A stretch of DNA of 64,000 nt, from NCBI GenBank assembly GCA_001898625.1, contig MKUP01000013.1, forward strand, positions 124,001 to 188,000, read 5' to 3'. Below the pieces are notes generated by a model. The model was not told where the DNA came from. It made no database searches and saw only the letters and a list, made by a program, of their open reading frames with translations. Origin of the DNA: Burkholderiales bacterium 67-32 (GTDB taxonomy: Bacteria > Pseudomonadota > Gammaproteobacteria > Burkholderiales > Burkholderiaceae_B). The position numbers were made by a program, and so were the translations under genes. Positions 17,861 through 62,283 of this stretch are shown here, piece by piece; the first letter of the stretch is position 1, and each line of letters begins with the position of its first letter.

Positions 17861-18790
17861 TCACCCCTCGGTCTCTCCAGGATGCGGCGGATCCGGCTCC
17901 GCCGGTCCACCCGCATCGCCCCCCGGGGGGCGCGCATCAGCGCGTAGGGGGGGAAAACTCCTCAAGTCGTGCAAGACCTGCCGCGTCGACATCGGCCGGC
18001 CATTCATATGATAGTCCAGCCGTTCTCGCAGCAAGCGGCGCAGCTCGGGCTCGGCCGCGGCATCGTCGAAGCGGCCCGCGGCCAGCGCCAGCAGCGACTC
18101 ACCGGTGATGGGCGTGCCCAGTTGTGGCGCTTCGGGCTCCTCGGATTCCGGCCCTGCTTCCAGCGGGACCCGGTAGCGCATGCCGGCTTGCACGGGCTCG
18201 CCGCTGCCCGTGGCGGCCGGGTCGAAGCCATAGCCGATCTCGCACAGCAGCCGCCATTCGAACTCCCGCAAGGCCGCCGACAACCGGGGATGCGCGGCCA
18301 GGCGGGACAAGGCCTCGACATAGGCGTCGTACAGCGACTCGTGGGGGTCGTCGCGCCCCAGCAGGCGCAGCAGCAGTTCGTTCAGGTACCAGCCCGACAT
18401 GGCCGCCGCGCCCTGCAAACGCTGCGGGGCCCCGAACCACTCGGCCCGCACCAGGGTCTTGATCTCGCCGGCGCCGCTCCAGGAAAGGCTCAGCCGCTGG
18501 AAGGCGATCAGCACCGGCCGCAGCGCCGAATGCGGCCGCTTCGCGCCCTTGGCCACCAGCGCCAGCCGGCCGTGGGAACGCGTGAACACGTCCAGGATCA
18601 GCGAGGTTTCGCGATAGGGATAACTGTGGATCAGGAAGGCGGGGACATCGTCCACCCGCTGCCCGCGGCCGCGCGGGCGCGCTTGCTTGGCCGGCGCGGG
18701 GGCGGGGACCAGGGGCGTCCGCCGGAACAGCGATCCTGCGGCGTCGGGCAAGATCTCGTCCGGCGCCACGGGATCCTGGGAATTACTCAT
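17861..18790 (-). CDS. recO: DNA repair protein RecO with repeat-derived C-terminus
   Basis: 309 residues. RecO loads RecA with RecR in the RecF pathway. The OB-fold start PAFLIHSYPYRETSLILDVF and the LALVAKGAKRP segment are typical, followed by the helical domain. A long N-terminal extension (about 45 residues, Pro/Arg rich) precedes the OB fold. The last roughly 25 residues (FPPLRADARPPGGDAGG... to the stop) are encoded by a copy of the dispersed GC-rich repeat, so the natural end was probably near HDLRS. It overlaps era by 8 bp. Confidence 0.92.
   Translation of the reverse strand: MSNSQDPVAPDEILPDAAGSLFRRTPLVPAPAPAKQARPRGRGQRVDDVPAFLIHSYPYRETSLILDVFTRSHGRLALVAKGAKRPHSALRPVLIAFQRLSLSWSGAGEIKTLVRAEWFGAPQRLQGAAAMSGWYLNELLLRLLGRDDPHESLYDAYVEALSRLAAHPRLSAALREFEWRLLCEIGYGFDPAATGSGEPVQAGMRYRVPLEAGPESEEPEAPQLGTPITGESLLALAAGRFDDAAAEPELRRLLRERLDYHMNGRPMSTRQVLHDLRSFPPLRADARPPGGDAGGPAEPDPPHPGETEG
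17880..17953 (-). repeat. Dispersed hairpin repeat, copy A (type 2)
   Basis: Minus-strand orientation. Read on the minus strand, a GATGCG-g-GTGGA-CCGGC arm and GCCGG-a-TCCGC-CGCATC arm flank a gga loop, preceded by C-run/G-run and TACGCG/CGCGC elements. One pair in the middle arm is a G-T wobble. The whole copy lies inside recO and encodes its C-terminus. Confidence 0.8.
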
Positions 18791-19688
18791 AACCCAGGTC
18801 GCGCAGCGCGCTTTCGCGCTCGGCCCAGCCCTTGCGCACCTTCACGTAGATTTCCAGGTGCACCGGCTTGTCGATCAGCTTGGCGATGTCCTGCCTGGCC
18901 TCGGTGGCGATGCGCTTCATCCGTTCGCCGCCCGTGCCCAGCAGGATCGGCCGGTGGCTGTCCCGGTCGACGATCACGCAGGCCGCGATGCGGGTCACGC
19001 GGGGCTGCTCTTCCCATTGCTCGATGACCACGGTGGAGCCGTAGGGCAGCTCGTCGCCGACCAGGCGGAAGATCTTCTCGCGGATGAGTTCACTGGCGAT
19101 GAAGCGCACCGGCCGGTCGGTCAGGGTATCTTCCTCGAACATGGGCTCGCCTTCGGGCAGGCCCTTGGCGATCTCGTCCAGCAGATGGTCGAGCTGGCGC
19201 GACTTGGCAGCGCTGACCGGCACGACGGCATCGTAGGGGTGCAGCGCCATGATGCGCGACACGTAGGGAAACAGCGCGTCGCGGTCCTTGAGCAGGTCGG
19301 TCTTGTTCACAGCCAGGATGCGCCGCGCCCGCGCCGGCAGCAGCGGCAGCAGGTTGGCGTCGCCCTCGGACCACTTGCCGGCCTCGACCACGTGCACCAC
19401 GACGTCCACGTCGGCCAGCGCCTGGGTCACCACCCGGTTCATCATGCGGTTCATCGCGCCGCCGTGGCGGGTCTGGAAACCGGGCGTGTCGACGAACACG
19501 AATTGCTCGGGGCCACGCGTGAAAACACCGTGGATGCGGTGGCGCGTGGTCTGCGCCTTGCGCGAGACGATGCTGACCTTGGCACCGATCAGCGCGTTCA
19601 GCAGGGTCGATTTGCCCACGTTGGGCCGACCGACGATGGCGACGAAACCGCAGCGGCTGGCGGTGGAGGAATCAGAAGACATGGTCAT
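18783..19688 (-). CDS. era: GTPase Era
   Basis: 301 residues. Era binds 16S rRNA 3' end during 30S maturation. G motifs are intact: G1 [10 protein letters not shown]2/G3 region with FVDTPGFQ, G4 AVNKTDLL and G5 PVSAAK. A C-terminal KH domain follows ([31 protein letters not shown]). The ATG at 19688 overlaps the rnc stop by 4 bp (ATGA); a second ATG two codons in (19682) is equally plausible. It is in the usual rnc-era-recO order. Confidence 0.95.
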
Positions 19689-20650
19689 TTCTTGACGGCG
19701 GGTTGGCTCGAGGCGGACAGGGTCTCGCCGGCGGGCTGCGGCGCCGAGGGTGCTGCCTGGGGTTCTTTCCGGGGGATGGCCGCCGGGACCGGCGCCTTGC
19801 CCTCGGCCGCCTGGGTCGAGGTGATCTTGGCGACCGGCGCCTCGGTGACGACGGGAGCCTTGGCCGGAACCGGGGCGGCGCCCTCCCCGGCCTTCGCCGG
19901 CTCGTCCGGCACTTCCTGCGCCACCGCCACCGGCAGCGACAACTGGGCCGTCTTGCGCGCGCGCGGCGAACGCTTGGCGGGCGTCGGGTTGGCGGCCAGC
20001 GCCGCCTCCAGCGCCTGCTTGGCGGCCGCCTGCTCGGCGGCGCGGCGGCTGCCGCCTATGCCGACCACCTGCACATCCAGCTTGGGGATGGCGCACTCGA
20101 CTTCGAATTCCTGGCTGTGGGCCGCGCCGTGCGTGGCCACCACCGTGTAGACCGGCAGCGCGATCTTGCGGCCCTGCAGGTATTCCTGCAGCAGCGTCTT
20201 GGCATCCTTGCCCAGCGTTTTCGGGTCGACGGTCTCGAGCACGGGCTTGTAGAGCCGGGCGATCACCGCGCTGGCCGCGTCGAAGCCGCCATCCATGAAG
20301 ATGGCGCCAAAGATGGCCTCGAGCGTATCGGCCAGGATGGAAGGCCGGCGGAAACCGCCGCTTTTCAACTCGCCTTCGCCCAGGCGCAGGAAGCGCGACA
20401 ACTCCACCCGCTGCGCGATATCCGCCAGCGATGCCTGCTTGACCAGATTCGCGCGCAGGCGGGACAGATCGCCTTCGTCGATGCGGGCGAAGCGGTCGTA
20501 CAGCAAGGAAGCGATCGCGCAGTTCAGCACGCTGTCGCCCAGGAACTCCAGGCGTTCGTTGTGCCTGCTGCTATGGCTGCGATGCGTCAGCGCCTGCTCC
20601 AGGAGACTCTTGTTCTTGAAGTTGTAGGCAAGGCTGGTCTCGAGATTCAT
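19685..20650 (-). CDS. rnc: Ribonuclease III with long C-terminal tail
   Basis: 321 residues. It cuts double-stranded RNA in rRNA processing and mRNA decay. The catalytic signature [19 protein letters not shown] (about 31-49) and second acidic helix [15 protein letters not shown] are present, and the dsRNA-binding domain follows ([16 protein letters not shown] to [17 protein letters not shown]). Residues from about 232 on are an extra Ala/Pro/Lys-rich tail of about 90 residues, probably disordered; E. coli RNase III ends near 226. A repeat copy lies just upstream of the start. Confidence 0.95.
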
Positions 20651-20727
20651 GCCCCCCCCCTACGCGCTGCGCGCGCCCCCCGGGGGGCGGCACTGGCGGA
20701 CCGGCGGAGCCGGATCCGCTGTGCCCA
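20651..20727 (+). repeat. Dispersed hairpin repeat, copy B (type 1)
   Basis: Plus orientation: C-run, TACGCGCTGCGCGCG, C-run/G-run stem, then GGCAC-tg-GCGGA-CCGGC-gga with arm GCCGG-a-TCCGC-t-GTGCC. It lies between lepB and rnc. The rest of the gap to the lepB stop (20728-20881) is GC-rich with no gene seen. Confidence 0.85.
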
Positions 20728-20881
20728 TGGGTACGACCCGGCTGATGACGGATGGGGAAGCTGCGTGGCGGGGCAATGCGCATGCGCGGCCGCGCCGCCA
20801 GGCGCGGCGGGCGCTTGCGGCGGGGTGCGACAGGCGGAGATAGGTGACGAGTTCATGCGGTGCGGCGCATGGCGCAAGACA

Positions 20882-21784
20882 TCAATGGAAGCGGCCAATC
20901 CGTTTCAGGTCCCCGAAATTCATCCAGACGAAAAACGCCTTGCCCACGATATTCGAATCCGGCACGAAACCCCAATAGCGGCTGTCCGCGCTGTTATCCC
21001 GATTATCGCCCATGACGAAATAATTGCCTGCGGGCACTTTGCAACGCACACCCTCGCGGGAATATTCGCAGGCATCGCGGTTCGGATAGCCGCCAAACGG
21101 GTCGATTTCCGGCGAACGTCGCTCATCTATCAATATCTGGTGCTCTACACCTTTGATATTTTCGTTATACAGCGCGGCGTAGGAAACCCGGTCGGGGTCG
21201 AAATATTCCCCTACTTTTTTCGTGGGTATTTCCTGGCCATTGATGGTCAGTCGCTTGTTCAGGTAGGCCACTTCGTCGCCCGGCACGCCGATCACGCGCT
21301 TGATGTAGTCGACCTGCGGATCGACCGGGTAGCGGAACACGACGACGTCGCCGCGCTGCGGGTCGCCCAGCGGGACGACCTTCTTGTCCACGATGGGCAG
21401 GCGCAGGCCGTACGAAAACTTGTTGACCAGGATGAGGTCGCCGATCTGCAGCGTGGGTATCATCGAGCCCGAGGGGATGCGGAACGGTTCGACCACGAAC
21501 GAGCGCAGCACGAACACGAACAGGATCACCGGGAAGAAGCTGACGGAGTACTCCACCCACCAGGGCATCTTGCCAGCGCGGTCCACCACGTCCTGGCGCT
21601 GGCGCGCGACTTCGGTCTCGCCGCTGGCGGCGCGTACCGACTGGGCGCGCCCGGCGTCGAATTCGGCGGCGGCACGGGCCATGCGGGCGGTGCGCTGCGG
21701 GCGCAGCGACACGCGGTCGAATGCCCAGACGATGCCGGTCACGACCAGCAGCACGAACAGGATCAGCGCGAAATTCAGGCTCAT
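20882..21784 (-). CDS. lepB: Signal peptidase I
   Basis: 300 residues. This is the inner-membrane protease that removes signal peptides from exported proteins. Two N-terminal membrane helices (about 4-21 and 74-92) surround a basic cytoplasmic loop. The catalytic Ser is in PSGSMIPTL (about residue 101) and the Lys in DYIKRVIGVPGDEV. The family boxes MGDNRDNSADSRYWG and GKAFFVWM close the protein. It lies 37 bp after lepA on the same strand, the standard lepA-lepB pair. Confidence 0.96.
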   Translation of the reverse strand: MSLNFALILFVLLVVTGIVWAFDRVSLRPQRTARMARAAAEFDAGRAQSVRAASGETEVARQRQDVVDRAGKMPWWVEYSVSFFPVILFVFVLRSFVVEPFRIPSGSMIPTLQIGDLILVNKFSYGLRLPIVDKKVVPLGDPQRGDVVVFRYPVDPQVDYIKRVIGVPGDEVAYLNKRLTINGQEIPTKKVGEYFDPDRVSYAALYNENIKGVEHQILIDERRSPEIDPFGGYPNRDACEYSREGVRCKVPAGNYFVMGDNRDNSADSRYWGFVPDSNIVGKAFFVWMNFGDLKRIGRFH

Positions 21785-21821
21785 GCCGCCTTCCCCTCGA
21801 TATGGTTCACAACACCGCGGT

Positions 21822-23615
<1,794 letters not shown>

Positions 23616-23633
23616 GCGATCCAAGTGATGAGC

Positions 23634-23709
23634 CCACCCCCTACGCGCTGCGCACGCCCCCTCAAGGGGGCGGCACTGGCGGACCGGCGAAGCCGGGGCC
23701 GCGGTGCCC
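23634..23709 (+). repeat. Dispersed hairpin repeat, copy C (type 1, diverged)
   Basis: Plus orientation between mucD and lepA. The hairpin reads GGCAC-tg-GCGG-a-CCGGC-gaa with arm GCCGG-gg-CCGC-g-GTGCC. The loop and bulge differ from copy B while all three stem blocks still pair. Confidence 0.8.
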
Positions 23710-23721
23710 TTGGGGATTTGC

Positions 23722-23781
23722 AAAAAAAGGGGGCGCAACGCGCCCCGCCTGTATCAGCCGTGCGGGACGTTCCCGCACGGC
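23722..23781 (-). terminator. Double terminator after mucD
   Basis: On the minus strand a perfect 11-bp stem (GCCGTGCGGGA/TCCCGCACGGC, 23757-23781) is followed by a second hairpin GGGGCGC-gtt-GCGCCCC (23730-23746) and then C plus seven Ts (complement of 23722-23728). The second is a textbook intrinsic terminator. It separates the sigma-E module from lepA-lepB-rnc-era. Confidence 0.85.
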
Positions 23782-23840
23782 CTGCCTGATAGATATGTCG
23801 CGACCCGGCATTTTACCGCCGAGCGCGAATGTCTGCCCGA

Positions 23841-25304: not shown

Positions 25305-25382
25305 TGAATGCGGATAGCACGCAGCACCGTGGAAGACTGACATGTAAGCTCCGGGTAAAGAAAGGGCTCGAACCGGCGGCGC

Positions 25383-26402: not shown

Positions 26403-26413
26403 GAGACCTTCCT

Positions 26414-27061: not shown

Positions 27062-27140
27062 TTCCATAACCTCCGAGGCTGCCGATTGCCCGGTTACCTG
27101 CCATTTTGCCCAAAATTCATGCCGCTCCGCTCTCCCCTGG

Positions 27141-28276: not shown

Positions 28277-28277
28277 A

Positions 28278-29507: not shown

Positions 29508-29601
29508 TGACTACTCCTCAAGTGCGCGGAGAAAAAGCGAATCCGGCAGCTGCCCTCCCGCCGTTGACTCCGGCAAGGTCGCGCATGGCCGCGCCGAACT
29601 T

Positions 29602-29630
29602 AAAAAACGAAGGCGGCCGATGAGCCGCCT
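29602..29630 (-). terminator. Intrinsic terminator between acpP and fabF
   Basis: On the minus strand AGGCGGC-tcatcg-GCCGCCT is followed by tcg and six Ts (complement of 29602-29607). It lies 21 bp after the acpP stop and would raise ACP message relative to fabF. Confidence 0.85.
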
Positions 29631-29651
29631 GCGTCATCGCACGAAAACGAT

Positions 29652-30824: not shown

Positions 30825-30899
30825 AGGGCACAGCGGATCCGGCTCCGCCGGTCCGCCAGTGCCGCCCCCTGGGGGGGCGCGCGAAGCGCGTAGGGGGGA
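30825..30899 (-). repeat. Dispersed hairpin repeat, copy D (type 1)
   Basis: Minus orientation in the 162-bp fabD-fabG gap. It has the same arms as copy B (GGCAC/GTGCC, GCGGA/TCCGC, CCGGC/GCCGG) with loop gga, plus the CGCG-rich and C-run/G-run hairpin. It abuts the fabD stop. The remaining gap (30741-30824) is C-rich with no gene. Confidence 0.85.
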
Positions 30900-30902
30900 G
30901 CC

Positions 30903-31841
30903 CTAATTGGAGGCGGTAGCCTCCAAGGCAGCTTGAAGCGACGCCTGGTCCGTCACGGCCAGGGCCGTCAGGTCGGGGGCGATGCGCTTGGCCAGGCCGG
31001 TCAGCACCTTGCCCGGTCCGCATTCGACGATATGGGTAATCCCCTGGGACTGCATCAGCTGTATGGTTTCCACCCATCGTACCGGATGCCAGGCCTGGCG
31101 GACCAGCGCGTCGGCGATCGCCGCCGGCTCGGTCGGCGCGGCCACGTCCACGTTATTGAGCACCGGGATATGGGGCGACTGGATGTCGATGGCTTCCAGC
31201 GCCTTGGCCAGGGTCTGGGCGGCCGGCTGCATCAGGCTGGAATGGAAAGGCGCCGAAACCGGCAGCGGCAGCGCGCGCTTGGCGCCCGCCTGCTTGGCGG
31301 CCTCGCAGGCGCGCTCCACGGCAGCCTTGTTGCCGGCGATCACCACCTGCGCCGGCGCGTTGAAGTTCACCGGCTCGACCACCTCGCCCTGGGCCGCGGC
31401 GGCGCAGGCGGCACGCACCTGGTCGTCGGTCAGGCCCAGGATGGCCGCCATGCCGCCCTGCCCCACGGGAACCGCGGACTGCATGGCGTCGGCACGGATG
31501 CGGACCAGCCGCACCGCATCTTCCAGCGTGAGCGAGCCGGCGGCGACCAGCGCCGCGTATTCGCCCAGGCTGTGCCCGGCGACGACCGCGGGAGCCGGCC
31601 CGCCCGCCGCCTGCCAGGCGGCATAGGCCGCCACGCCGGCGGTCAGCATGACCGGCTGGGTGTAGGTGGTCAGGTTCAGTTGTTCGGCCGGGCCATTGGC
31701 CATCAGGCCGCCCAGGTCCTCGCCCAGGGCGGCGCCGGCACGGGCCACCACGTCGGCTACCGACGCGTTGCCTGCGAAGCCGTCGAGCATGCCGACCGAC
31801 TGCGAACCCTGGCCGGGAAAGACGAATGCAATTTTAGTCAT
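30903..31841 (-). CDS. fabD: Malonyl-CoA-ACP transacylase
   Basis: 312 residues. It loads malonate onto ACP. FVFPGQGSQSVGML opens the protein, the nucleophile Ser is in VVAGHSLGEYAALVAAG (about residue 92), and the His is in PVSAPFHSSLM (about 201). Length is normal. It lies 36 bp after fabH in the minus-strand fab operon. Confidence 0.97.
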   Translation of the reverse strand: MTKIAFVFPGQGSQSVGMLDGFAGNASVADVVARAGAALGEDLGGLMANGPAEQLNLTTYTQPVMLTAGVAAYAAWQAAGGPAPAVVAGHSLGEYAALVAAGSLTLEDAVRLVRIRADAMQSAVPVGQGGMAAILGLTDDQVRAACAAAAQGEVVEPVNFNAPAQVVIAGNKAAVERACEAAKQAGAKRALPLPVSAPFHSSLMQPAAQTLAKALEAIDIQSPHIPVLNNVDVAAPTEPAAIADALVRQAWHPVRWVETIQLMQSQGITHIVECGPGKVLTGLAKRIAPDLTALAVTDQASLQAALEATASN

Positions 31842-36879: not shown

Positions 36880-38520
36880 ATGGCGGTACGCGATTTGCAC
36901 CCCCTGTCCGGCACCGAGGCCTCGGTCCGGCATGATGCCGATGTGCTGATCATAGGAGGCGGTCCGGCCGGCACGTGGGCCGCCGTTGGCGCGGCCGCGC
37001 GCGGCGCGCGCGTGCTGCTCGTGGACAAGGGATACTGCGGCACCTCCGGCGCGACCGCACCGTCCGGCACCGGCGTCTGGCACGTGCCGCGCGACGCCGC
37101 CGCGCGCGAGAAGGCCAAGGCCAGCCGCCTGGAAATGGGGGGCTTCCTGGCCGAACACGCCTGGATGGACCGCGTGCTCGAACAGACGTGGAACAACATC
37201 GAGACGCTGACGGAATGGGGCTACCCCTTCCCCCAGGACGAACACGGCCAGTTGCACCGGACCTCGCTGCAGGGCCCGGACTACATGCGCCTGATGCGCA
37301 AGGCGGCCAAGCGGGCGGGCGCGCGCATCCTCGACCACAGTCCGGTACTGGAGCTGCTGGTGGACGAGCACGGCACAGCCTGCGGCGCCGTCGGCATCAA
37401 CCGCCAGACGGGAGCGACATGGGTGGCCCGCGCGGGCGCGGTGGTGCTGGCCACGGGCGGCTGCGCTTTCCTGAGCCGCGCGCTGGGCTGCAACGTCCTG
37501 ACCGGCGATGGCTACCTGCTCGGCGCCGAGGCCGGCGCCGAACTGTCGGGCATGGAGTTCTCCAACGCCTACGGGCTGGGCCCGGCCTTCGCGTCGGTCA
37601 CCAAATCCCTGTTCTACAACTGGGCAACGTTCTATGACCGCGACGGGCAACGCATCGAGGGAGCGGGTTCGTCGCGCGGGCGCGGCGTCATCGCCAGGAC
37701 ACTGGCGACCCAGCCCGTCTACGCCTGCCTGGACCGCGCCGACGACGCCATCCGTGCCTGGATGCGCACCGCGCAGCCCAACTTCTTCGTCCCCTTCGAC
37801 CGGCAGGGCATCGACCCCTTCACCCAGCACTTCCCGGTCGCGCTGCGCCTGGAAGGCACGGTGCGCGGCACCGGCGGCCTGCACGTGGTCGGCGACGACT
37901 GCGCCACGACGGTGGCCGGACTGTATGCGGCGGGCGATGCCGCCACGCGCGAGCTGATCTGCGGGGCCTTCACCGGCGGCGGCAGCCACAACGCCGCCTG
38001 GGCCATGTCTTCGGGTTTCTGGGCCGGCGCCGGCGCCGCCCGGTTCGCCCGCGAGGCACGCGCCTTCGGCCACCGCGACGTCCACCGCGCCGGCGTGGCC
38101 GGGCTGGACGGCGATCCGTCCGCCTCGTGGGACGCGGACGCGGTCATCCGCGCGGTCCAGGCCGAGGTGTTTCCCACCGAACGCAACTGGACGCGCAGCG
38201 GATCGCTGCTGGAAGACTCGTTGCAGCGGCTGGATGCGCTGTGGCTCCGCGTGCGCCACGGACGCCCCGCGGGCACGGGCACACAGTGGGTGCGCGCCCG
38301 CGAGGCGGCGGCCATGCTGGCGACCTCGCGCTGGATGTATCGCAGCGCCCTGCAACGCACCGAGACGCGGGGCATGCACCGGCGCGCCGAGCACGCCGCC
38401 GTCGATCCCGCCCAGCACCACCGGCTGGTCAGCGGCGGGCTGGACGACGTCTGGGTACGGGCACAGCCCGTCTCGACGCCCGCGACGCCGGGCGCCTACA
38501 CGGGCAAGGTGGCGGCATGA
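36880..38520 (+). CDS. FAD-dependent oxidoreductase, AprA/fumarate reductase type
   Basis: 546 residues. The FAD-binding dinucleotide fold is VLIIGGGPAGTWAAVGAAAR (about 23-42) with DKGYCGTSGATAPSG typical of flavoproteins with covalently or tightly bound FAD. LATGGCAFLS, GTGGLHVVGDD and GLYAAGDAA mark the second FAD region and RTETRGMHRRAEH the C-terminal helical domain. It is closest in layout to adenylylsulfate reductase alpha, fumarate reductase and aspartate oxidase. An AGGAG site precedes the ATG. It is coupled (ATGA) to a ferredoxin gene and followed by an ABC importer. Substrate is unknown. Confidence 0.85.
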   Translation: MAVRDLHPLSGTEASVRHDADVLIIGGGPAGTWAAVGAAARGARVLLVDKGYCGTSGATAPSGTGVWHVPRDAAAREKAKASRLEMGGFLAEHAWMDRVLEQTWNNIETLTEWGYPFPQDEHGQLHRTSLQGPDYMRLMRKAAKRAGARILDHSPVLELLVDEHGTACGAVGINRQTGATWVARAGAVVLATGGCAFLSRALGCNVLTGDGYLLGAEAGAELSGMEFSNAYGLGPAFASVTKSLFYNWATFYDRDGQRIEGAGSSRGRGVIARTLATQPVYACLDRADDAIRAWMRTAQPNFFVPFDRQGIDPFTQHFPVALRLEGTVRGTGGLHVVGDDCATTVAGLYAAGDAATRELICGAFTGGGSHNAAWAMSSGFWAGAGAARFAREARAFGHRDVHRAGVAGLDGDPSASWDADAVIRAVQAEVFPTERNWTRSGSLLEDSLQRLDALWLRVRHGRPAGTGTQWVRAREAAAMLATSRWMYRSALQRTETRGMHRRAEHAAVDPAQHHRLVSGGLDDVWVRAQPVSTPATPGAYTGKVAA

Positions 38521-38840
38521 TCGAGATCGTCAGCGCCGAGCGATGCACCGCCTGCAACATCTGCGTGCACGCCTGCCCCACTAATGTCTTCGATCTCGTC
38601 CCCGGCGGCCCGCCGCGTATCGCCCGGCAGTCCGATTGCCAGACCTGCTTCATGTGCGAGCTGTACTGCCCGGTGGACGCCCTGTACGTGGCAGCGTCGG
38701 CCGATGCCGCGCAAGCGGTCGAGGAAACCGCGGCGCGGCCCCTGATGGGCAGCTACCGCGCCGCGATCGGCTGGGGGGCTGGGCGCACGGCGACGGCGCA
38801 GCGCGACAGCAGTTTCGAGCTCCTGACGCGAGCTCACTGA
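38517..38840 (+). CDS. 2[4Fe-4S] ferredoxin-like subunit
   Basis: 107 residues from the ATG overlapping the flavoprotein stop. Two cluster motifs are clear: CTACNICVHACP and CQTCFMCELYCP, each C-x2-C-x2-C-x3-C. This is the pattern of the AprB-like small subunit that passes electrons to or from an AprA-type flavoprotein. The tail (about residues 60-107) is Ala-rich and without motif. The pair probably forms a two-subunit redox enzyme. Confidence 0.88.
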   Translation: MIEIVSAERCTACNICVHACPTNVFDLVPGGPPRIARQSDCQTCFMCELYCPVDALYVAASADAAQAVEETAARPLMGSYRAAIGWGAGRTATAQRDSSFELLTRAH

Positions 38841-38845: not shown

Positions 38846-38999
38846 CCCCCTACGCGCTTACGCGCGCCCTGCACGGGTGAGCCCCCAGCCGCTACGCGGC
38901 AGCCCCCCGAGGGGGCCGGGGCCCGCCTTGGGGCGGCCCGGCGCCGGGCCCCGTAGGGGGCGGCACTGGCGGACCGGCTGAGCCGGATCCGCTGTGCCC
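38846..38999 (+). repeat. Compound dispersed repeat, copy E (type 1 with internal insert)
   Basis: The left part (C-run, TACGCGC) and right part (G-run, GGCAC...GTGCC hairpin with tga loop) are those of the other copies, but about 80 bp of extra GC-rich sequence lies between, including GCCGCTACGCGGC and GGGGCCGG/CCGGGCCCC inverted repeats. The copy fills most of the 201-bp gap between the ferredoxin and binding-protein genes. Confidence 0.8.
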
Positions 39000-39041
39000 T
39001 GGCAACTGCCGGGGCATCGTTATTTTCAAAAGGGTAGGAAT

Positions 39042-50637: not shown

Positions 50638-50693
50638 TCTAAGGCTATAAAAATCCTTGCCGTATCGGCCCAACCCTAGCCTTCAGGAATCCC

Positions 50694-51941: not shown

Positions 51942-51978
51942 AATGGCGGCTTGGCCTGCCCTACGGGATATCCCCTCC

Positions 51979-55457
<3,479 letters not shown>

Positions 55458-55473
<16 letters not shown>

Positions 55474-56321
55474 CGCGGCCCGCCTGGAACGCCATGGAAC
55501 CCGACCTGGACGAAATCGAGCTGGACCTGTTCGTCGAAGCCCTGCGGCGGCGCCACGGCTATGACCTGGGCCAATACGCGCGCCCCTCGCTCAAGCGGCG
55601 CGTGCAGGGGCTGGTCCGCCAGCATGGCCTCGCGCACATCGGCGAACTCACCTCGCGCATGCTGCGCGATGCCACCTTCCTGCCCCAGGTGATCGACGGG
55701 CTGTCGGTGCCCGTCTCGGAAATGTTCCGCGATCCCTTCGTGTTCGAAGCGCTGCGCACCAAAGTGTTTCCGACCCTGGCCTCGTATCCCAGTATCAACA
55801 TCTGGCAGGCGGGCTGCGCCCACGGCGAGGAAGTCTATTCGCTCGCCATCCTGCTCGAGGAAGCCGGACTGTACGATCGCAGCCAGATCTACGCCACCGA
55901 TTTTTCCGACGCCGCCCTGGCGCGGGCCCGGGAAGGCATCTTCCCCGTGCGCGAGGCGCGGGCGGCCTCGCTGCGCTACCAGCAGTCGGGCGGCACCCGC
56001 ACGCTGGCCGACTACTATCACGCGCGCTACGACCTGGTGAAGCTGGACGAATCGCTGTGCCGCAACGTGGTCTTCGCCAACCACAACCTGGCCACGGACG
56101 GGGTGTTCTGCGAAGCCCACCTGATCCTGTGCCGCAACGTGCTGATCTACTTCAACAACACCTTGCAGGACCGCACGCTGGCCCTGTTCGCCGACAGCCT
56201 CGTGCGCGGCGGCTTCCTGTGCCTGGGCACCAAGGAAAACCTCGCGCTGGCCTCGGCCGCCTCCAGCTTCGCCACGGTGGACGGCCCGGCGCGGATATTC
56301 CGATCGGTGCGGGCAACCTGA
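55458..56321 (+). CDS. CheR-type protein-glutamate methyltransferase
   Basis: 287 residues. The N-terminal helical domain (RRRHGYDLGQYARPSLKRRV) and SAM motif IWQAGCAHGEEVYSLAILLE (about 116-135), with IYATDFSDAALARAREGIF and LILCRNVLIYFN, are CheR signatures. It uses S-adenosylmethionine to methylate glutamates on a receptor. No chemoreceptor gene is near. The frame starts inside the kinase gene (16-bp overlap); ATG at 55494 (MEPDLDE) is an alternative start that would not overlap. Confidence 0.9.
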
Positions 56322-56333
56322 CGGAGGGATGCG

Positions 56334-56894
56334 ATGGAACTGGTGGCCATCGGCTGTTCCACCGGCGGATTGCGGGCCCTGCAAGTCCTGCTGCGCGGCC
56401 TGGCCCCCTGCCCCCGGACCGCGTTCGTCGTCGTCATCCATACGGCCTCTGCCGATGCCGACTCCCTGTGCCAGTTGCTGGCCCGCGACACCTCCATGTC
56501 CGTGCAGGAAGCGCAGGAGCGTGCGCCGGTGCTGCCGGGTGTGCTCTATGTCGCGCCGCCGGGCTATCATCTGCTCATCGGGCGCGACCAATATTTCTAT
56601 TTGAACGTCGACCCCAAGGTCTGCTTCGTTCGGCCCAGCATCGACGTGCTGTTCGAATCGGCCGCCGATGCTTACCGCCACCGCATGGCCGGCGTGATCC
56701 TGACCGGCGCCAACGACGATGGCGCCCGCGGACTGCGCTGCGTGCGACGACGGGCGGGCATCGCGCTGGTGCAAGACCCGGAGGAAGCGGAAGCCTCCAG
56801 CATGCCTGAAGCGGCGCTTTCCCTGGCGGGCGCCGACCATTGCCTCGCGCTCGCCGGCATCGCGAGCGAACTCAACCGGATGTGCCTATCTTGA
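56334..56894 (+). CDS. CheB-type methylesterase, receiver domain absent
   Basis: 186 residues, the catalytic domain only. The Ser-His-Asp set is readable: GCSTGGLRALQVLL (Ser about 9), VVVIHTASADADSL (His about 41) and VILTGANDDGARGL (Asp about 129); the final motif has NDD where typical CheB has GxD. It removes methyl groups from receptor glutamates. Without receiver it may be constitutive or controlled in trans. Its stop overlaps the next start (TTGA). Confidence 0.86.
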   Translation: MELVAIGCSTGGLRALQVLLRGLAPCPRTAFVVVIHTASADADSLCQLLARDTSMSVQEAQERAPVLPGVLYVAPPGYHLLIGRDQYFYLNVDPKVCFVRPSIDVLFESAADAYRHRMAGVILTGANDDGARGLRCVRRRAGIALVQDPEEAEASSMPEAALSLAGADHCLALAGIASELNRMCLS

Positions 56895-57901
56895 AGACCG
56901 ACCTGCCCACCCCCAAGATCCTGATCGTGGACGACACGCCGGCCAACCTGTTCGCCATGCGCAAGCTGCTGGCGCAGATCGATGCCGAACTGGTCACGGT
57001 CACCTCGGGCAACGAAGCGCTGGCGCTTTGCCTGGACCAGCGCTTCGCGCTGATCCTGCTCGACGTCAACATGCCGGAGATGGACGGCTACGAGGTCGCC
57101 GCCCTGCTGTCCAACGAGCCGCTCAATCGCGACACGCCCGTCATCTTCGTCACCGCCGCCTTCGCCGACGACCTGAACCAGTTGAAGGGCTATCGCAGCG
57201 GCGCGGTGGACTACATCGCCAAGCCGGTCAACGACTCGATCCTGCTGTCCAAGGTCAAGGTATTCCTGGAACTGGAAACCGGCCGCCAGCAGTTGGCGCA
57301 GGCGCTGTCCACGCTGGAACAGCGCAATCAGCAGTTGCAGGTGGAGATCGCCGAACGGCGCCGCATCGAGGAGCAGATGCGCCACCAGGCCACGCACGAC
57401 CAGTTGACCGGGCTGCCGAACCGGGCCTTGTTCATCGAGACCCTGGACCGCTTCCTGAGCCGCGCCCAGCGGCACGAGGAGTTGTTCGCCCTGCTGTACG
57501 TGGACATCGACGGCTTCAAGCAGGTCAACGACGGCTATGGCCACCAGGCCGGCGACATGCTGTTGCAAGCCTTCTCGCTGCGCCTGCGGTCCGCGCTGCG
57601 CGCCGAGGACGTCGTAGCCCGCCTGGGCGGCGACGAATTCGGCGTCCTGCTGTGCAAGGCCGCCGATAGCGGCGCGATCCAGCAGAAATGCGTCGACCTG
57701 TGCGAGATCCTGCGCGCGCCCTACCGGCTGACCAGCAACGGCCAGGCATTCACGGCCCACGTCGGGGCCAGCATAGGCGCCGCGATCGCCATGCAGCACG
57801 GCATCAACCGCGACAGCCTGGTGCAGGCGGCCGACAACGCGATGTACGAAGCCAAGCGCAGCGGCAAGAACCAGGCGAGGCTGGCCGCCACGCTGCTGTG
57901 A
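56891..57901 (+). CDS. Receiver-GGDEF diguanylate cyclase
   Basis: 336 residues from a TTG start that overlaps the cheB stop by 4 bp. The receiver (KILIVDDTPANLFAMRKLL, LILLDVNMPEMDGYE with phospho-Asp about 57, VDYIAKPVN) is followed by a short coiled coil and GGDEF domain: LTGLPNRALF, DIDGFKQVNDGYGH and the active site RLGGDEFGVLL. The inhibitory I-site RxxD (RAED) is five residues before GGDEF. It should make c-di-GMP when phosphorylated. Probable output of the upstream kinase. Confidence 0.92.
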   Translation: MKTDLPTPKILIVDDTPANLFAMRKLLAQIDAELVTVTSGNEALALCLDQRFALILLDVNMPEMDGYEVAALLSNEPLNRDTPVIFVTAAFADDLNQLKGYRSGAVDYIAKPVNDSILLSKVKVFLELETGRQQLAQALSTLEQRNQQLQVEIAERRRIEEQMRHQATHDQLTGLPNRALFIETLDRFLSRAQRHEELFALLYVDIDGFKQVNDGYGHQAGDMLLQAFSLRLRSALRAEDVVARLGGDEFGVLLCKAADSGAIQQKCVDLCEILRAPYRLTSNGQAFTAHVGASIGAAIAMQHGINRDSLVQAADNAMYEAKRSGKNQARLAATLL

Positions 57902-57910
57902 CCGCCCGCG

Positions 57911-59213
57911 CTAAAGCGTGACCGCGACGCCCTGGCGGGCGTCGGCGTGGCGCAGGAAATCGGTGACGGCATCGCCCCCCATGGGGGGCGAGCACAGGAA
58001 ACCCTGCCAGGCATCGCAGCCCAGTTGCCTGAGCGCCTCCAGCTGCTGCGGCGTCTCGACGCCTTCGGCAATGGTCTGGATATCGACCGAGCGACAGAAC
58101 TGGATGACGGTGCGCAGCATTTCCTTGTCGTAGGTGTTGTCCAGCATACCGGCCACGAACTGCCGGTCCAGCTTGACCGCCGCGAACTGCGCCGAGCGCA
58201 GCCGCAGGAAATTGGAATATCCGCTGCCGAAGTCGTCCAGGCTGAAGCCCACCCCCATTTCTCCCAGCCGCCGGGTGATGGTGCCGGCCTCTTCCGGATC
58301 GGGAATCTCGGCCGACTCGGTCAGCTCGATCTCCAGCCGGCCCGATTCGATGCCATATTCCTCCAGGACCCTGCCCACGCTCTCGGCCAGGTCCCCCTGC
58401 AACTGGGCGGCGCTGAGATTGACGGCCACCTGGGCACAGAACACGCCTTCCTCGCGCCATTGGGCCAGTTGCTGGCACGCGCGCTTGAGCACCCACATGC
58501 CCAGCGCGGAGCTAAGCCCCGCCGCCTCGACCTCGGGCACGAAGTCGTTGGGCATGACCAGGGCGCCCTTGCGATGCCAGCGCACCAGGGCCTCGACGCC
58601 GCGCACCCGGCCAGTCCGCATCTCGAGCTGGGGCTGGTAGAACAGTTCGAACTCGCCGCGGTCCAGGCCCTGCATGACCTCGGTGACCAGCGTGTCCTCG
58701 CGCGACATCAGCACGCCGTCCAGGTCCTCGGGGCCGTCGTTCCAGCACACCCAGCGCGCACGGGTGCGCAGCGCGTAGCGGGCCGCCTGCTGGGCGCGCA
58801 GCAACACGTTGGAAGGCTGGGGCAGGTCGCTGGGCAGCGACGATGCCGAAGGCGGCCAGCGAGGACCCCTGGCTGGCACCCAGTATCTGCAACAGCGAGG
58901 ATCGCTGGAACAACCGCTGGGCGGCGCCTATCGCACCCGACTTGTCGTTGACGTCGCGCAACACGACGATCAGGCTGGCGTCGTCGAGCATGCAAAGCAG
59001 GTCGTCCGCCCGGATGAAACGGCGGATCTTGCTGAGGATCTCGTCACGCTGGTGGGGAGCGGCGTCGGAGGGCAAGGCCAGCGCCATGACAGCGGCGCGC
59101 CGGCGCTCGCCGATCAGCACGCCCAGCTCGCGCAACAGCATGGCCCGTTCGCTGACATTGGCGAACTGTCGTACGGCCTCGGCGGGCTTGGACCTTCTAG
59201 GCATCGGCGACAT
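57911..59213 (-). pseudogene. Frameshifted GGDEF-like/EAL protein
   Basis: Two overlapping minus-strand frames make one protein. The first (59213 to about 58845) reads MSPMPRRSKPAEAVRQFANV to SSLAAFGIVA, the degenerate first half of a GGDEF domain. Continuation (SLPSDLPQPSNVLLRAQQAA) and a full EAL domain (FELFYQPQLEMRTGRVRGVE, EIELTESAEI, DDFGSGYSN, KLDRQF, IAEGVET) lie in another frame to 57911. The break near 58843-58847 needs one extra base removed, or two bases added. EAL catalytic residues look intact except that the EAL motif is VEALVRW as usual. It could be a real mutation, a sequencing error, or internal start. It converges on the cyclase gene with a 9-bp gap. Confidence 0.75.
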
Positions 59214-59228
59214 GGAAAAATCGAACAA

Positions 59229-59561
59229 ACATCAAGCTTCTTTTAATCGATATACCGCTAGTCCGTCATCGGCGCCAGGCACACGGGGCCGTGATACATG
59301 ATCATCGCACAGAGGCGATCATCGCAAAAGCGAAACCGCGCCCCGTGGGGCCAGCCCGGTCATCCGGCGCGAACGACGCGCCTTTCGCGGCAAGTTAGTA
59401 AACGCCAACATTAGACTTCACCCGATAATCCGTATGGGATCATTAAGGGACGCATAGGCGGCAAGAACGGGTTCTCCCGTTACAATGTTAACAACTGTTG
59501 CCTTCAGTACGAAGCCCCCTGGGCAATACCCTATGCTCTCAAGCGGATCAACGGGGAATAC
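59229..59561. promoter_or_regulatory. Intergenic control region of bcsP
   Basis: No gene is seen. It holds a 10-bp direct repeat GATCATCGCA at 59300-59309 and 59317-59326 (17-bp spacing), an AT-rich part (59395-59450), and a hairpin AACGGG-ttct-CCCGTT followed by TGTTAACAACTGTTG with AACA/TGTT symmetry (about 59467-59500). These are operator candidates for the divergent EAL gene and bcsP. Confidence 0.4.
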
Positions 59562-60053
59562 ATGAAAGAATCCGACGACATCGCCAACCTGTTCCGGCAC
59601 TTCGGCGGCCAGCCTGACCAGTACCAGGAAATCAGTCGCGCCAACGAAGCCCACCAATCGCGCGAGCGCTGGCCGCTGCTGGCCTCGATCGAGGCGGACC
59701 AGGCTGCGCAACGCCCCCCCGTGGACGTGCCTGTCCTCGGGAACGCTCCGCAGGCGCCGCAGCCGGCCGTCCAGCCCGCGACCGCCCGGCCGGTTGCCGC
59801 GCCGTCTGCCGCCGAACCGATCCCGTCACCGGCCGGGCGCATAGAGCCCCATCTGTCCGCTCCGCCGGCATCGCCTCCTCCCGCCGACCCGCGCGCCACT
59901 GTCGGCGTCTCCACTACCGCTGCCCGTATGGCTCCGGAGCGGGAACCGGAACCCCAGTTGCAAGCGCTCTTCACCCGCCTGGCCCGACCTGCCGCCCAAA
60001 CCTCGGCCGACAAGAAAAGCGCATCCCTCCTCGAACGTTTGAATCGACTGTGA
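59562..60053 (+). CDS. Cellulose biosynthesis accessory protein BcsP/BcsR-like
   Basis: 163 residues. The N-terminus DDIANLFRHFGGQPDQYQEI and SRERWPLLASIEADQ carries the RWPLL motif of BcsR, and the middle is Pro/Ala-rich as in BcsP/BcsO-type proteins of betaproteobacteria. The C-terminus (SADKKSASLLERLNRL) is a conserved helix-like end. Such proteins accompany BcsQ in cellulose synthase operons. The stop overlaps the bcsQ GTG start (GTGA). Confidence 0.75.
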   Translation: MKESDDIANLFRHFGGQPDQYQEISRANEAHQSRERWPLLASIEADQAAQRPPVDVPVLGNAPQAPQPAVQPATARPVAAPSAAEPIPSPAGRIEPHLSAPPASPPPADPRATVGVSTTAARMAPEREPEPQLQALFTRLARPAAQTSADKKSASLLERLNRL

Positions 60054-60823
60054 AGATTATTGCTGTCGTTTCCGCCAAGGGCGGCGTCGGCAAGACCACG
60101 GCCACCGCCAACCTCTGCGCGGCCCTGAAGCAGGGTGGCCGCAACGTGCTCGCCATCGACCTCGATCCCCAGAACGCCCTGCATCTGCATTTCGGCGACA
60201 ACCCCCGGCGCATCGCGGGCACGTCCCGGGCGACGCTGGCCGGGCAGGATTGGCGCGACGTCGGCTTCTCCAGTTCGTCCGGCGTCGTCGTCCTGCCCTA
60301 CGGGGCCGTCAACGAGGACGACCGGCAAGCCTTCGAGCGCCACCTTGACGGGCACGCCGACTGGCTGCCCCGCAACATCCAGGCCCTGGGCCTGGGCGCC
60401 GAGGACGTGGTCGTGCTGGACACGCCCCCCGGTCCGTCGGTCTACATGCGCACCGCCTTGTCGGCGGCACAGCTGAGCGTCATTGTTACGCTGCCCGACG
60501 CCGCTTCCTATGCCACGCTTCCGATGATGGAAGGCCTGGTCCAGACCTACTGCGTCAAGCGGCCCGACTTCATCAACCACGTCTTCGTGGTCAACCAGGT
60601 CGACAACTCGCGGCTGCTCGCGCGCGACGTGCTGCAGGTCATGCGCGCCGACTTCGGCAAGCGCGTGGTCGGCGTCATCCACCAGGACCAGTCGGTCAGC
60701 GAAGCCCTTGCCTTCAACCAGAGCGTGCTTGACTACGATCCGCGGTGCCAGGCCACGCAGGACTACCTGGCGTGCGCCCGGAACATCGAGGCCATGCTGA
60801 CCACCTTCGGGTCCTCGCCCTGA
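60050..60823 (+). CDS. bcsQ: Cellulose biosynthesis protein BcsQ (ParA-like ATPase)
   Basis: 257 residues. A deviant Walker A KGGVGKTTATANL (about 10-22), Asp in IDLDPQNALHLHF and DTPPGPSVYM place it in the MinD/ParA group, and the LDPQNALRLH-like motif and the C-terminal SEALAFNQSVLDYDP are BcsQ-specific. In E. coli it localises cellulose secretion to the pole. It starts with GTG in a 4-bp overlap with the gene before. Downstream no bcsA, bcsB or bcsC exists; moaA follows directly. Confidence 0.88.
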   Translation: MKIIAVVSAKGGVGKTTATANLCAALKQGGRNVLAIDLDPQNALHLHFGDNPRRIAGTSRATLAGQDWRDVGFSSSSGVVVLPYGAVNEDDRQAFERHLDGHADWLPRNIQALGLGAEDVVVLDTPPGPSVYMRTALSAAQLSVIVTLPDAASYATLPMMEGLVQTYCVKRPDFINHVFVVNQVDNSRLLARDVLQVMRADFGKRVVGVIHQDQSVSEALAFNQSVLDYDPRCQATQDYLACARNIEAMLTTFGSSP

Positions 60824-60865
60824 TACGGCGCAGCCCTCCCGTGCCATGGGGTAGTATTGCAGGAC

Positions 60866-62008
60866 ATGGCGGGCCAGTCCCGCCTCCTGCTGCCCCTTCG
60901 TACCGTGACCGCAAAGACCATCCTGCTGACCGATTACCGCGCGCGCCGCCCTGTTCCCGTCGCCGCCAGTGACCTCATCGCGCCCTCCGGCCAACTGGCG
61001 GACACACGCGGCAGGATGCTGCACGACCTGCGCATCTCCGTCACCGACCGCTGCAACTTCCGCTGCGTGTACTGCATGCCCAAGGAAGTCTTCGGCAAGG
61101 ACTACCCTTACCTGCCCCACGACGCCCTGCTCAGCTTCGAGGAAATCGTGCGGTTGGCGCGGCTGTTCGTGGCCCACGGCGTCGAGAAGATCCGCCTGAC
61201 CGGCGGCGAACCGCTGCTGCGCAAAAACATCGAGACCCTGGTTGCCCGGCTGGCCGAACTGCGCACGCCATCGGGCAGGCCGCTCGACCTGACCCTGACC
61301 ACCAACGCGTCGCTGCTGGCACGCAAGGCGCGCGCCTTGGCCGATGCGGGGCTGAACCGGGTCACCGTCAGCCTGGACGCGCTGGACGACACGGTTTTTC
61401 GCCGCATGAACGACGTCGACTTCGCCGTCGCCGACGTGCTGCATGGCATCGATGCCGCGGCCGAGGCGGGTCTGGGGCCCATCAAGGTCAACATGGTGGT
61501 CAAGAAGGGCCTCAACGACGACCAGATCGAACCCATGGCCGAGCACTTCCGCCACTCCGGCCACACCCTGCGCTTCATCGAGTACATGGACGTGGGCGCG
61601 TCCAATGGCTGGAAGATGGACGAAGTCGTGCCTTCGGCCGACATCCTGCGGCGCCTGGGCGCCCGCTGGCCGCTCGAAACCCTGGAGCCGCACTACACCG
61701 GCGAAGTCGCCCAGCGCTGGCGCTACCGCGATGGCGGCGGCGAAGTCGGCGTCATCTCCAGCGTCACCCAGGCCTTCTGTTCATCCTGTACCCGCGCCCG
61801 CCTGTCCACCGAAGGCCAGCTCTACCTGTGCCTGTTCGCCGATCAGGGCTACGACCTGCGCACCCTGCTGCGCGGCGGCGCCAGCGACGACCAACTGGCC
61901 ACCGCCATCGCCCGCATCTGGCAAGCCCGCACCGACAACTACTCCGAACGCCGCTCCGCCGACACCCCCCGCTCCGGCCGCATAGAAATGAGCTATATCG
62001 GAGGGTGA
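60866..62008 (+). CDS. moaA: GTP 3',8-cyclase (molybdenum cofactor biosynthesis protein A)
   Basis: 380 residues. Radical SAM cluster CNFRCVYC (about 59-66) and a second [4Fe-4S] site at the C-terminus ([20 protein letters not shown]). [27 protein letters not shown] and VSLDALDD are typical, and the end IEMSYIGG carries the conserved GG tail. It starts molybdopterin synthesis from GTP. An ATG at 60866 is taken; a GTG at 60905 ([14 protein letters not shown]) would give the usual length. It follows bcsQ by 42 bp and lies upstream of repeat copy F. Confidence 0.94.
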
Positions 62009-62013
62009 GGGAG

Positions 62014-62093
62014 GCCCCCCCCTACGCCCTGACGGGCGCCCCCCAGGGGGCGATGCGGGTGGACCGGCGGAGCCGGATCCACCGCATCCTGGG
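62014..62093 (+). repeat. Dispersed hairpin repeat, copy F (type 2)
   Basis: Plus orientation, 6 bp after the moaA stop. It has C-run, TACGCCCTGACGGGCG, C-run/G-run stem, then GATGCGG-GTGGA-CCGGC-gga and arm GCCGG-a-TCCAC-CGCATC. Compared with type 1, GCGGA/TCCGC has become GTGGA/TCCAC, and GGCAC/GTGCC has become GATGCG/CGCATC, on both arms. Confidence 0.85.
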
Positions 62094-62149
62094 GTACCAA
62101 CGGGCTGGCGGAGAACGGCGATACTGCCTAGCAGCCGCTTGGGCTCAAC

Positions 62150-62184
62150 AAGAACGGCCTTGCATATGATGCAAGGCCGCTCTT
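62150..62184. terminator. Long inverted repeat between moaA and pagL
   Basis: CGGCCTTGCAT-atg-ATGCAAGGCCG is a perfect 11-bp stem, extended by AAGA/TCTT with one mismatch. Since moaA and the pagL-like gene converge, it may terminate both transcripts. There is only a short T-tract (TCTT) on each side. Confidence 0.55.
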
Positions 62185-62206
62185 GTATCCGCGATCGGCT
62201 TAGGCC

Positions 62207-62280
62207 CAGGGCGCAGCGGATCCGGCTTTGCCGGTCCGCCAGTGCCGCCCCCCTGGGGGGCGCGCGCAAGCGCGTAGGGG
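62207..62280 (-). repeat. Dispersed hairpin repeat, copy G (type 1)
   Basis: Minus orientation, 4 bp from the pagL-like stop. Stem blocks GCGGA/TCCGC and CCGGC/GCCGG are kept and the loop is aaa. The outer arm has one mismatch (GGCAC against GCGCC). With copy F it forms an inverted pair between two convergent genes. Confidence 0.8.
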
Positions 62281-62283
62281 GAA

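What the first reader, a model, noticed from the sequence alone, without database searches (positions are those of the whole stretch)
17880..62280. Family of seven dispersed hairpin repeats with covarying arms
Copies A-G (17880, 20651, 23634, 30825, 38846, 62014, 62207) share a plan: C-run, TACGCG/CGCGCG, C-run/G-run stem, then a three-block hairpin around CCGGC/GCCGG. The CCGGC/GCCGG block is identical in all seven, while the loop is gga, gaa, tga or aaa. Between type 1 (B, C, D, E, G) and type 2 (A, F) the middle block changes from GCGGA/TCCGC to GTGGA/TCCAC on both arms and the outer block from GGCAC/GTGCC to GATGCG/CGCATC on both arms. Compensated change is the sign of a structure under selection or of gene conversion of whole arms. 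I do not know a published name for it. Six of the seven lie in intergenic gaps within a 45-kb span, at gene 3' ends or between genes of one operon; copy A instead lies inside recO.
Basis: seen in the sequence. Interest (0 to 1): 0.85.

Follow-up and report, generated by a model that had tools for sequence, protein, structure and literature searches.

The report
Hairpin repeats hugging stop codons
A bacterium, most likely a Pigmentiphaga, carries well over 150 copies of an 80-letter, three-hairpin DNA repeat that mostly sit almost on top of gene stop codons and keep their paired arms matched while the sequence changes; it resembles the known REP and Bor repeats, but no REP-type transposase was found, so how it spreads and what it does at gene ends is an open, testable question.

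Summary
The copies are real and belong to a family of at least 166, probably about 190, in this genome. The host is most likely Pigmentiphaga; the family also occurs in Bordetella and Achromobacter. Each copy is ~75-80 nt: C-run, hairpin 1, C/G-run hairpin, then a long hairpin with a three-base loop and a bulged base. Arms covary: 7 pairs in 150 own copies, 10 in 47 copies from six genomes. Two details of the finding fail: copy A's middle block is changed on one arm only, and copy E is interrupted by a ~69-nt module.

The unexpected result: 104 of 150 copies begin -20 to +15 nt from the stop codon of a same-strand gene (random placement 23+-4; 111 of 166 with the copies found later). All 23 close pairs are convergent, some forming ~250-bp palindromes. 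Presence and subtype differ between species at orthologous sites, and RecO gained a repeat-encoded tail. No Y1/RAYT transposase was found in 11 of 11 repeat-bearing genomes tested.

Best reading: a REP-like (probably Bor-type) non-autonomous element acting as a 3'-UTR hairpin cluster. RNA function is inferred; one strand-bias test did not support it, and no helper enzyme was found.

The parts
17879..17953 (-). Copy A, type 2 outer block (GATGCG/CGCATC); forms the 3' end of the recO reading frame (recO 17861-18790 -)
   Evidence: R1 92.5 bits; recO by Pfam; repeat-encoded RecO tail against relatives
20654..20727 (+). Copy B, type 1; between the signal peptidase gene and rnc (RNase III), antisense to the operon, abutting the predicted rnc start
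   Evidence: R1 86.6 bits; genes; internally deleted in G007 and G002
23635..23710 (+). Copy C, CACCCCC...CCCCCTCAAGGGGG subtype; upstream of lepA, antisense to it
   Evidence: R1 76.1 bits; lepA by Pfam
30825..30899 (-). Copy D, type 1; starts 3 nt after the stop of the acyltransferase-domain gene 30903-31790(-); type 2 at the same site in G007 and G003
   Evidence: R1 89.3 bits
38845..38877 (+). Copy E, 5' part (C-run and hairpin 1), 4 nt after the stop of 38517-38840(+)
38878..38946 (+). Interrupting GC-rich hairpin module of the long form (called module Z here)
   Evidence: similar module at orthologous site E in G002 and at site B in G003 and G005
38947..39000 (+). Copy E, hairpin 3 (type 1)
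   Evidence: R1 54.8 bits
62016..62090 (+). Copy F, type 2, 7 nt after the stop of the MoaA-like gene 60866-62008(+)
   Evidence: R1 94.8 bits
62091..62207 (.). Spacer of the F/G convergent pair, with a hairpin near 62149-62186; this stretch is inverted in G002
62208..62283 (-). Copy G, type 1, directly after the stop of the PagL-like gene 62284-62820(-)
   Evidence: R1 90.4 bits

Best explanation
The copies belong to a REP-like, probably Bor-type, family of non-autonomous mobile palindromic elements of Alcaligenaceae. Each is a fixed-polarity unit (preceded by a C-poor tract; C-run; hairpin 1; C5/G5 hairpin; long hairpin with a three-base loop and a bulge) that mostly lies in a 3' UTR, starting within about 15 nt of a stop codon and, in about a third of the ends tested, upstream of a separate terminator-like hairpin. 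Shown: the family, its polarity, stop-codon phasing, covariation, presence/absence and subtype differences between species, and no Y1/RAYT gene found in the repeat-bearing genomes tested. Inferred: once transcribed, the hairpin cluster sits where the ribosome leaves the gene and acts on the 3' end of the message (blocking 3'-5' decay and/or slowing release of the terminating ribosome, as reported for E. coli REPs within 15 nt of a stop), which is why copies persist mostly there. Inferred: copies spread by an unknown helper acting in trans on one folded strand, and subtypes are exchanged by recombination or gene conversion among copies.
For: At least 166 copies, about 190 by pattern. 104 of 150 start -20..+15 nt from a same-strand stop against 22.6+-3.9 (max 35 in 2000 draws) for random placement in the same gaps; with the 16 copies found later, 111 of 166. 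91 of 130 against 26+-4 when placement is weighted for the C-poor preference. In 10 of 150 the repeat supplies the stop codon. The other end shows no such phasing: 5 of 150 near an opposite stop. Same tendency in other genomes, best-scoring loci only: Bordetella sp. BOR01 10 of 10, A. ruhlandii 9 of 11, B. petrii 6 of 10, G018 10 of 15, G015 7 of 22, where copies stand in tandem. Repeat-bearing gene ends are more often convergent (36 of 105 versus 89 of 422), have longer gaps to a co-directional next gene after subtracting the repeat (median 123 versus 38 nt), and carry a terminator-like hairpin downstream more often (31 of 94 versus 30 of 226). All 23 pairs closer than 300 nt among 166 copies are convergent. 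Covariation. The loop's third base is A and the bulge is A in 150 of 150 own copies. Precedent: PMC12306157 (passages read) cites an earlier study for 260 of 496 E. coli REPs near stops and for ribosome stalling; its own count is 446 of 4,072.
Against: No expression data. One-sided states at the seven covarying pairs are few (10 of 1050: 6 A-C, 2 G-T, 2 T-T), without the G-U bias expected if the sense RNA structure were what is selected. 46 of 150 copies are not stop-adjacent, and 31 of 150 have the start side of a gene facing their C-run. In the 16 later copies only 7 are adjacent. Gene calls are from a homemade codon-model finder, and the terminator scan is homemade too. Single-sequence folds are only modestly better than shuffles. 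No helper enzyme was identified.
Confidence: 0.55

Rival explanations
1. Purely selfish element: a helper inserts copies with a target bias for C-poor tracts near gene 3' ends, and copies that land elsewhere are purged. The RNA hairpins do nothing for the host.
For: The 10 nt upstream of the C-run are C-poor in stop-adjacent and other copies alike (11% and 10% C versus 27-32% further upstream). Some copies lie in or replace the last codons of genes and supply new stops or tails (recO; L349 against L191). Presence/absence differs within the genus. Mosaic copies occur at several sites.
Against: The C-poor preference predicts only about 26 stop-adjacent copies where 91 of 130 are seen. Arms remain matched in 98.1% of cells.
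Confidence: 0.3
2. The repeats are themselves transcription terminators, working as a U-less cluster of hairpins after the stop codon.
For: Three hairpins in tandem right after stops; bias to convergent gene ends and long gaps. Hairpin clusters near stop codons, without an essential U-tract, are proposed as terminators in PMC8355165 (passages read).
Against: Only 2 of 150 copies have four or more T in the 8 nt after the repeat, and 4 of 150 a TTTT within 20 nt. A separate terminator-like hairpin lies downstream in 31 of 94 tested repeat-bearing ends, which would be redundant. 69 of 105 repeat-bearing ends precede a co-directional gene.
Confidence: 0.2
3. The covariation is a DNA-copying effect: arms are made identical by template switching within the palindrome or by conversion between copies, so matched arms need not mean a selected structure.
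For: Few intermediates; subtype differences at orthologous sites; the F/G centre is inverted in G002.
Against: The apical loop keeps its orientation (third base A in 150 of 150) and so does the bulge, whereas inversion of the hairpin tip would be expected to flip them; ten pairs covary across genera.
Confidence: 0.25

Closest known systems
Bor repeats / Bor-1 family of Bordetella (PMC1590033, PMC2267715; passages read)
   Same: Intergenic, near coding regions, stem-loop, high copy (Bor-1: 196 in B. bronchiseptica with a 117-bp model, 128 in B. pertussis with a 93-bp model); the consensus is described as having N and R positions and REP-like identity; the present family occurs in Bordetella genomes.
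   Different: The published consensus is only in a figure, so sequence identity was not tested. The passages read do not describe a three-hairpin plan, covariation, stop-codon phasing or paired palindromes. The Bordetella genomes searched here gave 38 matches at most (only 150 candidates scored in each).
REP/BIME elements of the GTAG superfamily with RAYT transposases (PMC3733652, PMC2817692; passages read)
   Same: Extragenic palindromes, high copy, complementary arm changes between subtypes, inverted pairs; part of the E. coli REPs lie within 15 nt of stops (PMC12306157, passages).
   Different: ~75-80 nt with three hairpins instead of 20-40 bp; GTAG (on the antisense strand) is in most Pigmentiphaga copies but absent from the Bordetella copies and all but one of the Achromobacter copies seen; no Y1_Tnp gene in 11 of 11 repeat-bearing genomes tested.
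BRE, Beta-proteobacterial repeat element (PMC3110155; passages read)
   Same: ~90 bp, Bordetella and other Betaproteobacteria, intergenic, sometimes tandem; tandem copies of the present family occur in G015.
   Different: BRE has few copies (8-22 per Bordetella genome) and 69.0% mean GC (63.7-78.9%); the present copies have 69-85% GC, an overlapping range, and are mostly single in the own genome. BRE sequence not available for comparison.

Membership tests
REP (GTAG superfamily) | Many extragenic palindromic copies per genome | tested here: met
   At least 166 copies; 5 of 150 lie inside a predicted gene
REP (GTAG superfamily) | Conserved terminal GTAG tag | tested here: not met
   CTAC follows the C-run in most own copies (T 94%, A 91%, C 93% by position), but Bordetella copies and 10 of 11 Achromobacter copies read CCGAAGC or CCGGAGC there
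REP (GTAG superfamily) | RAYT (Y1_Tnp) gene in the genome, flanked by the repeats | tested here: not met
   PF01797: 0 of 11 repeat-bearing genomes with at least 17 copies that were tested (G000-G008, G013, G015); the control rings in 5 of 14 named genomes. G018 (43 copies) and the named Bordetella and Achromobacter genomes were not tested
REP (GTAG superfamily) | Unit of 20-40 bp with a single stem-loop | tested here: not met
   ~75-80 nt, three hairpins in the consensus fold
REP (GTAG superfamily) | Inverted pairs (BIME-like) | tested here: met
   23 convergent pairs among 166 copies; recurring spacer types
Bor / Bor-1 | Match to the published consensus | not testable with these tools
Bor / Bor-1 | High-copy intergenic stem-loop repeat in Bordetella | tested here: inconclusive
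   28 and 38 matches in BOR01 and B. petrii, 2 of 9 genomes of that genus with none (only 150 candidates scored each); B. pertussis and B. bronchiseptica not searched by name
BRE | Tandem ~90-bp repeat, low copy, mean GC 69% | tested here: inconclusive
   GC 69-85%; tandem arrays seen in G015; BRE sequence not available
Rfam RNA families | Score above the gathering threshold | tested here: not met
   0 matches of 4227 families in the window
Intrinsic terminator | GC hairpin directly followed by a T-run | tested here: not met
   2 of 150 copies have four or more T in the 8 nt after the repeat

The most novel reading that the evidence does not exclude
A family of mobile elements that is aimed at stop codons: an unknown, non-RAYT machinery that recognises one folded strand (fixed loop A and bulged base) installs a ready-made 3'-UTR module directly behind coding sequences, sometimes replacing the last codons and the native terminator, and as a ~250-bp palindrome serving both genes of a convergent pair, so that the family acts as an exchangeable standard part for gene 3' ends across Alcaligenaceae.
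Probability: 0.17. Interest if true: 0.78.

Novelty: new variant of a known kind. Interest (0 to 1): 0.52.

Why it matters
REP-like repeats occur in many bacteria, and their role and means of spread are not settled. This family gives a clean case in which the repeat is phased to the stop codon, keeps matched arms across genera, and differs in presence and subtype between close species, yet comes without the transposase thought to move REPs. That makes two questions directly testable: whether REP-class hairpins act on translation termination and mRNA 3' ends, and what moves them when RAYTs are absent. It also shows a repeat becoming protein, the RecO tail.

Tried and rejected
RAYT-driven REP: searched PF01797 in the own genome and in 24 relatives; none in the 11 genomes with at least 17 copies. 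Known RNA family: none in Rfam for the window. Transposon-like units with a gene between two copies: of the seven same-strand neighbouring pairs at 605-1132 nt, six have a predicted gene between them; those genes were not searched against families. The nine genes near window copies that were searched are housekeeping or metabolic in type. Strand bias of G-U pairs as a test of RNA selection: the total of 63 G-T against 15 A-C looked supportive, but 60 of the 63 come from two columns that are hardly real pairs, and at the seven covarying pairs it is 2 against 6, so it does not support RNA. C-poor target preference as a full explanation of stop adjacency: rejected. First comparison of orthologous copies (65 mapped of 82; 24 of 52 different, 13 empty) was confounded by paired copies and was redone on single copies (26 mapped, 24 used). 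Single-sequence folding gave only modest z-scores (-1.1 to -4.1), so energy alone is not evidence. Sixteen copies found only are not in the main counts; they were added. Literature: searches were looked at by their listings (12 listed of 9,106, none relevant to Pigmentiphaga repeats); of the listed papers only those on Bor and BRE concern repeats in this family of bacteria. PMC2718517 and PMC7509114 gave only reference-list passages.
Full report
WHAT IS THERE. The seven copies exist and share a plan. Written from the C-run: a C-run (5-9 C in the own copies), hairpin 1 (CGCGC/GCGCG or variants), a C5/G5 hairpin, then a long hairpin with outer block (GGCAC/GTGCC or GATGCG/CGCATC), middle block (GCGGA/TCCGC or GTGGA/TCCAC), inner block CCGGC/GCCGG and a three-base loop. 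Corrections to the finding: A has a one-sided middle block; G has a mismatch in the outer block; C has a disturbed 3' arm; E is interrupted by ~69 nt of other hairpins. No Rfam family matches in the window.

GENOME-WIDE FAMILY. A covariance model from six window copies (R1) matched all 150 candidates that the tool scored in the 6.66-Mb assembly, so 150 was a cap; in the 97 stretches fetched around those sites it found 166. A core pattern with up to three mismatches gave 197 sites against 9 for the reversed pattern, so about 190 is my estimate. The relatives called 'same genus' include G002, whose contig lengths equal those of Pigmentiphaga kullae K24, and G005, one of whose contigs equals in length one of 'Alcaligenaceae bacterium SAGV5'; from this I infer the genus Pigmentiphaga. 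It also occurs in Bordetella sp. BOR01, B. petrii BT1 9.2 and Achromobacter ruhlandii (26, 37 and 18 matches). In the genus of BOR01 7 of 9 genomes have matches with a second model.

STRUCTURE AND COVARIATION. On the 150 best own copies (123 distinct), 98.1% of cells pair; 7 pairs change on both sides, with 275 such cells (shuffles 94+-14, none of 500 as high; slid structures at most 35). In that set the number of pairs with a double change and the number of pair types do not exceed the shuffles (404 and 495 of 500 reach them). On 47 chosen copies from six genomes (46 distinct) all five measures exceed most or all shuffles: 10 pairs (5.3+-1.1), 80 cells (18.1+-3.5), 22 pair types (3 of 500 shuffles reach it). 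Hairpin 1 is CGCGC, CGCCC or CCCGC in the own genome, GAAGCGC in most Bordetella and Achromobacter copies, GAGGCGC in most G018 copies, nearly always with the matching other arm. The seven pairs occur in 31 combinations. The alignments were fitted to, or folded from, these sequences, and copies are related, so counts are not independent events. One-sided states at the seven pairs are 10 of 1050 cells (6 A-C, 2 G-T, 2 T-T): no sign of the G-U route expected under RNA selection. The loop's third base is A and the bulge is A in 150 of 150: the element has a fixed polarity. In the other genera the bulge is A or C.

POSITION. I called genes with a simple codon model in 97 stretches around the copies. 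In 113 of 150 the gene before the C-run is on the same strand, and in 104 of 150 its stop codon is -20 to +15 nt from the repeat's first base; 7 of the 16 copies found later are adjacent too, 111 of 166 in all. Random placement in the same gaps gives 22.6+-3.9 (maximum 35 in 2000 draws), with orientation kept 27.9+-4.4 (maximum 43). Ten copies supply the stop codon themselves. The 10 nt before the C-run are C-poor in stop-adjacent and other copies alike; weighting for this gives 26+-4 against 91 of 130 observed. TAG stops are over-represented before copies (44 of the 94 whose stop lies upstream, against 135 of 558 genes). The tendency holds in other genomes on their best-scoring loci, least in G015 (7 of 22), where copies stand in tandem. 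Repeat-bearing gene ends are more often convergent and have longer gaps, and a terminator-like hairpin follows in 31 of 94 against 30 of 226 (homemade scan, counted from the repeat's end in one group and from the stop in the other). So copies lie at transcription-unit ends more often than other gene ends do, a third of the tested ones with a terminator-like hairpin downstream.

PAIRS. All 23 pairs of copies closer than 300 nt are convergent (12 among the first 150). Two spacer types recur: one is itself an inverted repeat (CTGGGTCTAG...CTAGACCCAG), so that copy-spacer-copy is a palindrome of about 250 bp; the other holds a hairpin with an A-run before and a T-run after it in several members. 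29 and 21 of 150 copies share these 3' flanks, and a further 5 share the other half of the second type. The window's F/G pair is of the second type.

HISTORY. At orthologous sites, A and D are occupied in G000, G002, G003, G005 (A there by a rearranged pair), G007 and G008, and empty in G001, G004, G006 and G010; D is type 1 in G000, G002, G005, G008 and type 2 in G003 and G007, whose flanks are 94-97% identical to the own ones. Site E, seen only in two relatives, is empty in G007 and in long form in G002; B is a deletion scar in G002 and G007; the centre between F and G is inverted in G002 but not in G007. For single copies of G007 and G002 that map to a single own copy, 17 of 24 keep the block and 7 differ, 2 of them by the full type 1/type 2 exchange. 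Empty or scarred own sites facing a copy or pair in G007 or G002 are listed (13 rows, with the caution that paired copies confuse some). RecO ends in VLRDLQDYLP or VLRDLQDFDVLPRGQ in three genomes where site A is empty and in a tail of about 30 residues, about 25 of them read from the repeat, in G000, with like tails in G002, G007 and G008; in G003 and G005 the frame ends otherwise, and G010 gave no clear end.

MEANS OF SPREAD. The Y1_Tnp family, which covers RAYTs and IS200/IS605 (recalled), was not found in any of the 11 genomes tested with at least 17 copies, and was found in 8 others, all with 0-2 copies. The element looks mobile, but its helper is unknown.

HOW IT MOST LIKELY WORKS. Shown: a polar, three-hairpin repeat phased to stop codons. 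Inferred: transcribed as 3' UTR, it acts on the terminating ribosome and on 3' decay, as E. coli REPs within 15 nt of stops are reported to do (PMC12306157, passages read, citing an earlier study I did not read, with 260 of 496 REPs near stops; the 2025 paper itself counts 446 of 4,072). Rivals: selfish element with a target bias; hairpin-cluster terminator (PMC8355165, passages read; only 2 of 150 copies have a T-rich 8 nt after them); covariation from DNA-level arm copying.

KNOWN OR NEW. The nearest named family is Bor/Bor-1 of Bordetella (passages); it is probably the same class, but its consensus could not be compared. The present family fails two defining features of RAYT-driven GTAG REPs, the tag and the transposase, and differs in unit size. 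I rate it a new variant of a known kind.

Noticed in passing
17861-17953 (recO 3' end): RecO gained a C-terminal tail of about 30 residues, about 25 read from the repeat; three related genomes without the repeat end without it.
   Followed up: partly
20654-20727: Copy B abuts the predicted start of rnc (RNase III), a gene whose own leader is an RNase III target in E. coli (recalled); reduced to a scar in G007 and G002.
   Followed up: no
38878-38946: Module Z, a ~69-nt GC-rich multi-hairpin insert inside copy E, recurs in copies of G002, G003 and G005 and in an own copy on contig C27: a long form of the element.
   Followed up: partly
62091-62207: The centre of the F/G pair is inverted in G002 relative to G000 and G007: a possibly invertible intergenic segment between convergent genes.
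   Followed up: no
L158, L157, L227, L220 and other own loci; L272 and L278 (G015): Mosaic copies: a truncated first copy ending in GGACCGG or CGCTGA is fused to a purine-rich linker such as AAGGGAAGCC plus a full second copy, also in G015.
   Followed up: no
L174 and L207 (own): Some own sites look like collapsed palindromes: only the outer ends of a pair seem to remain where G002 or G007 has the full pair.
   Followed up: no
   Followed up: no
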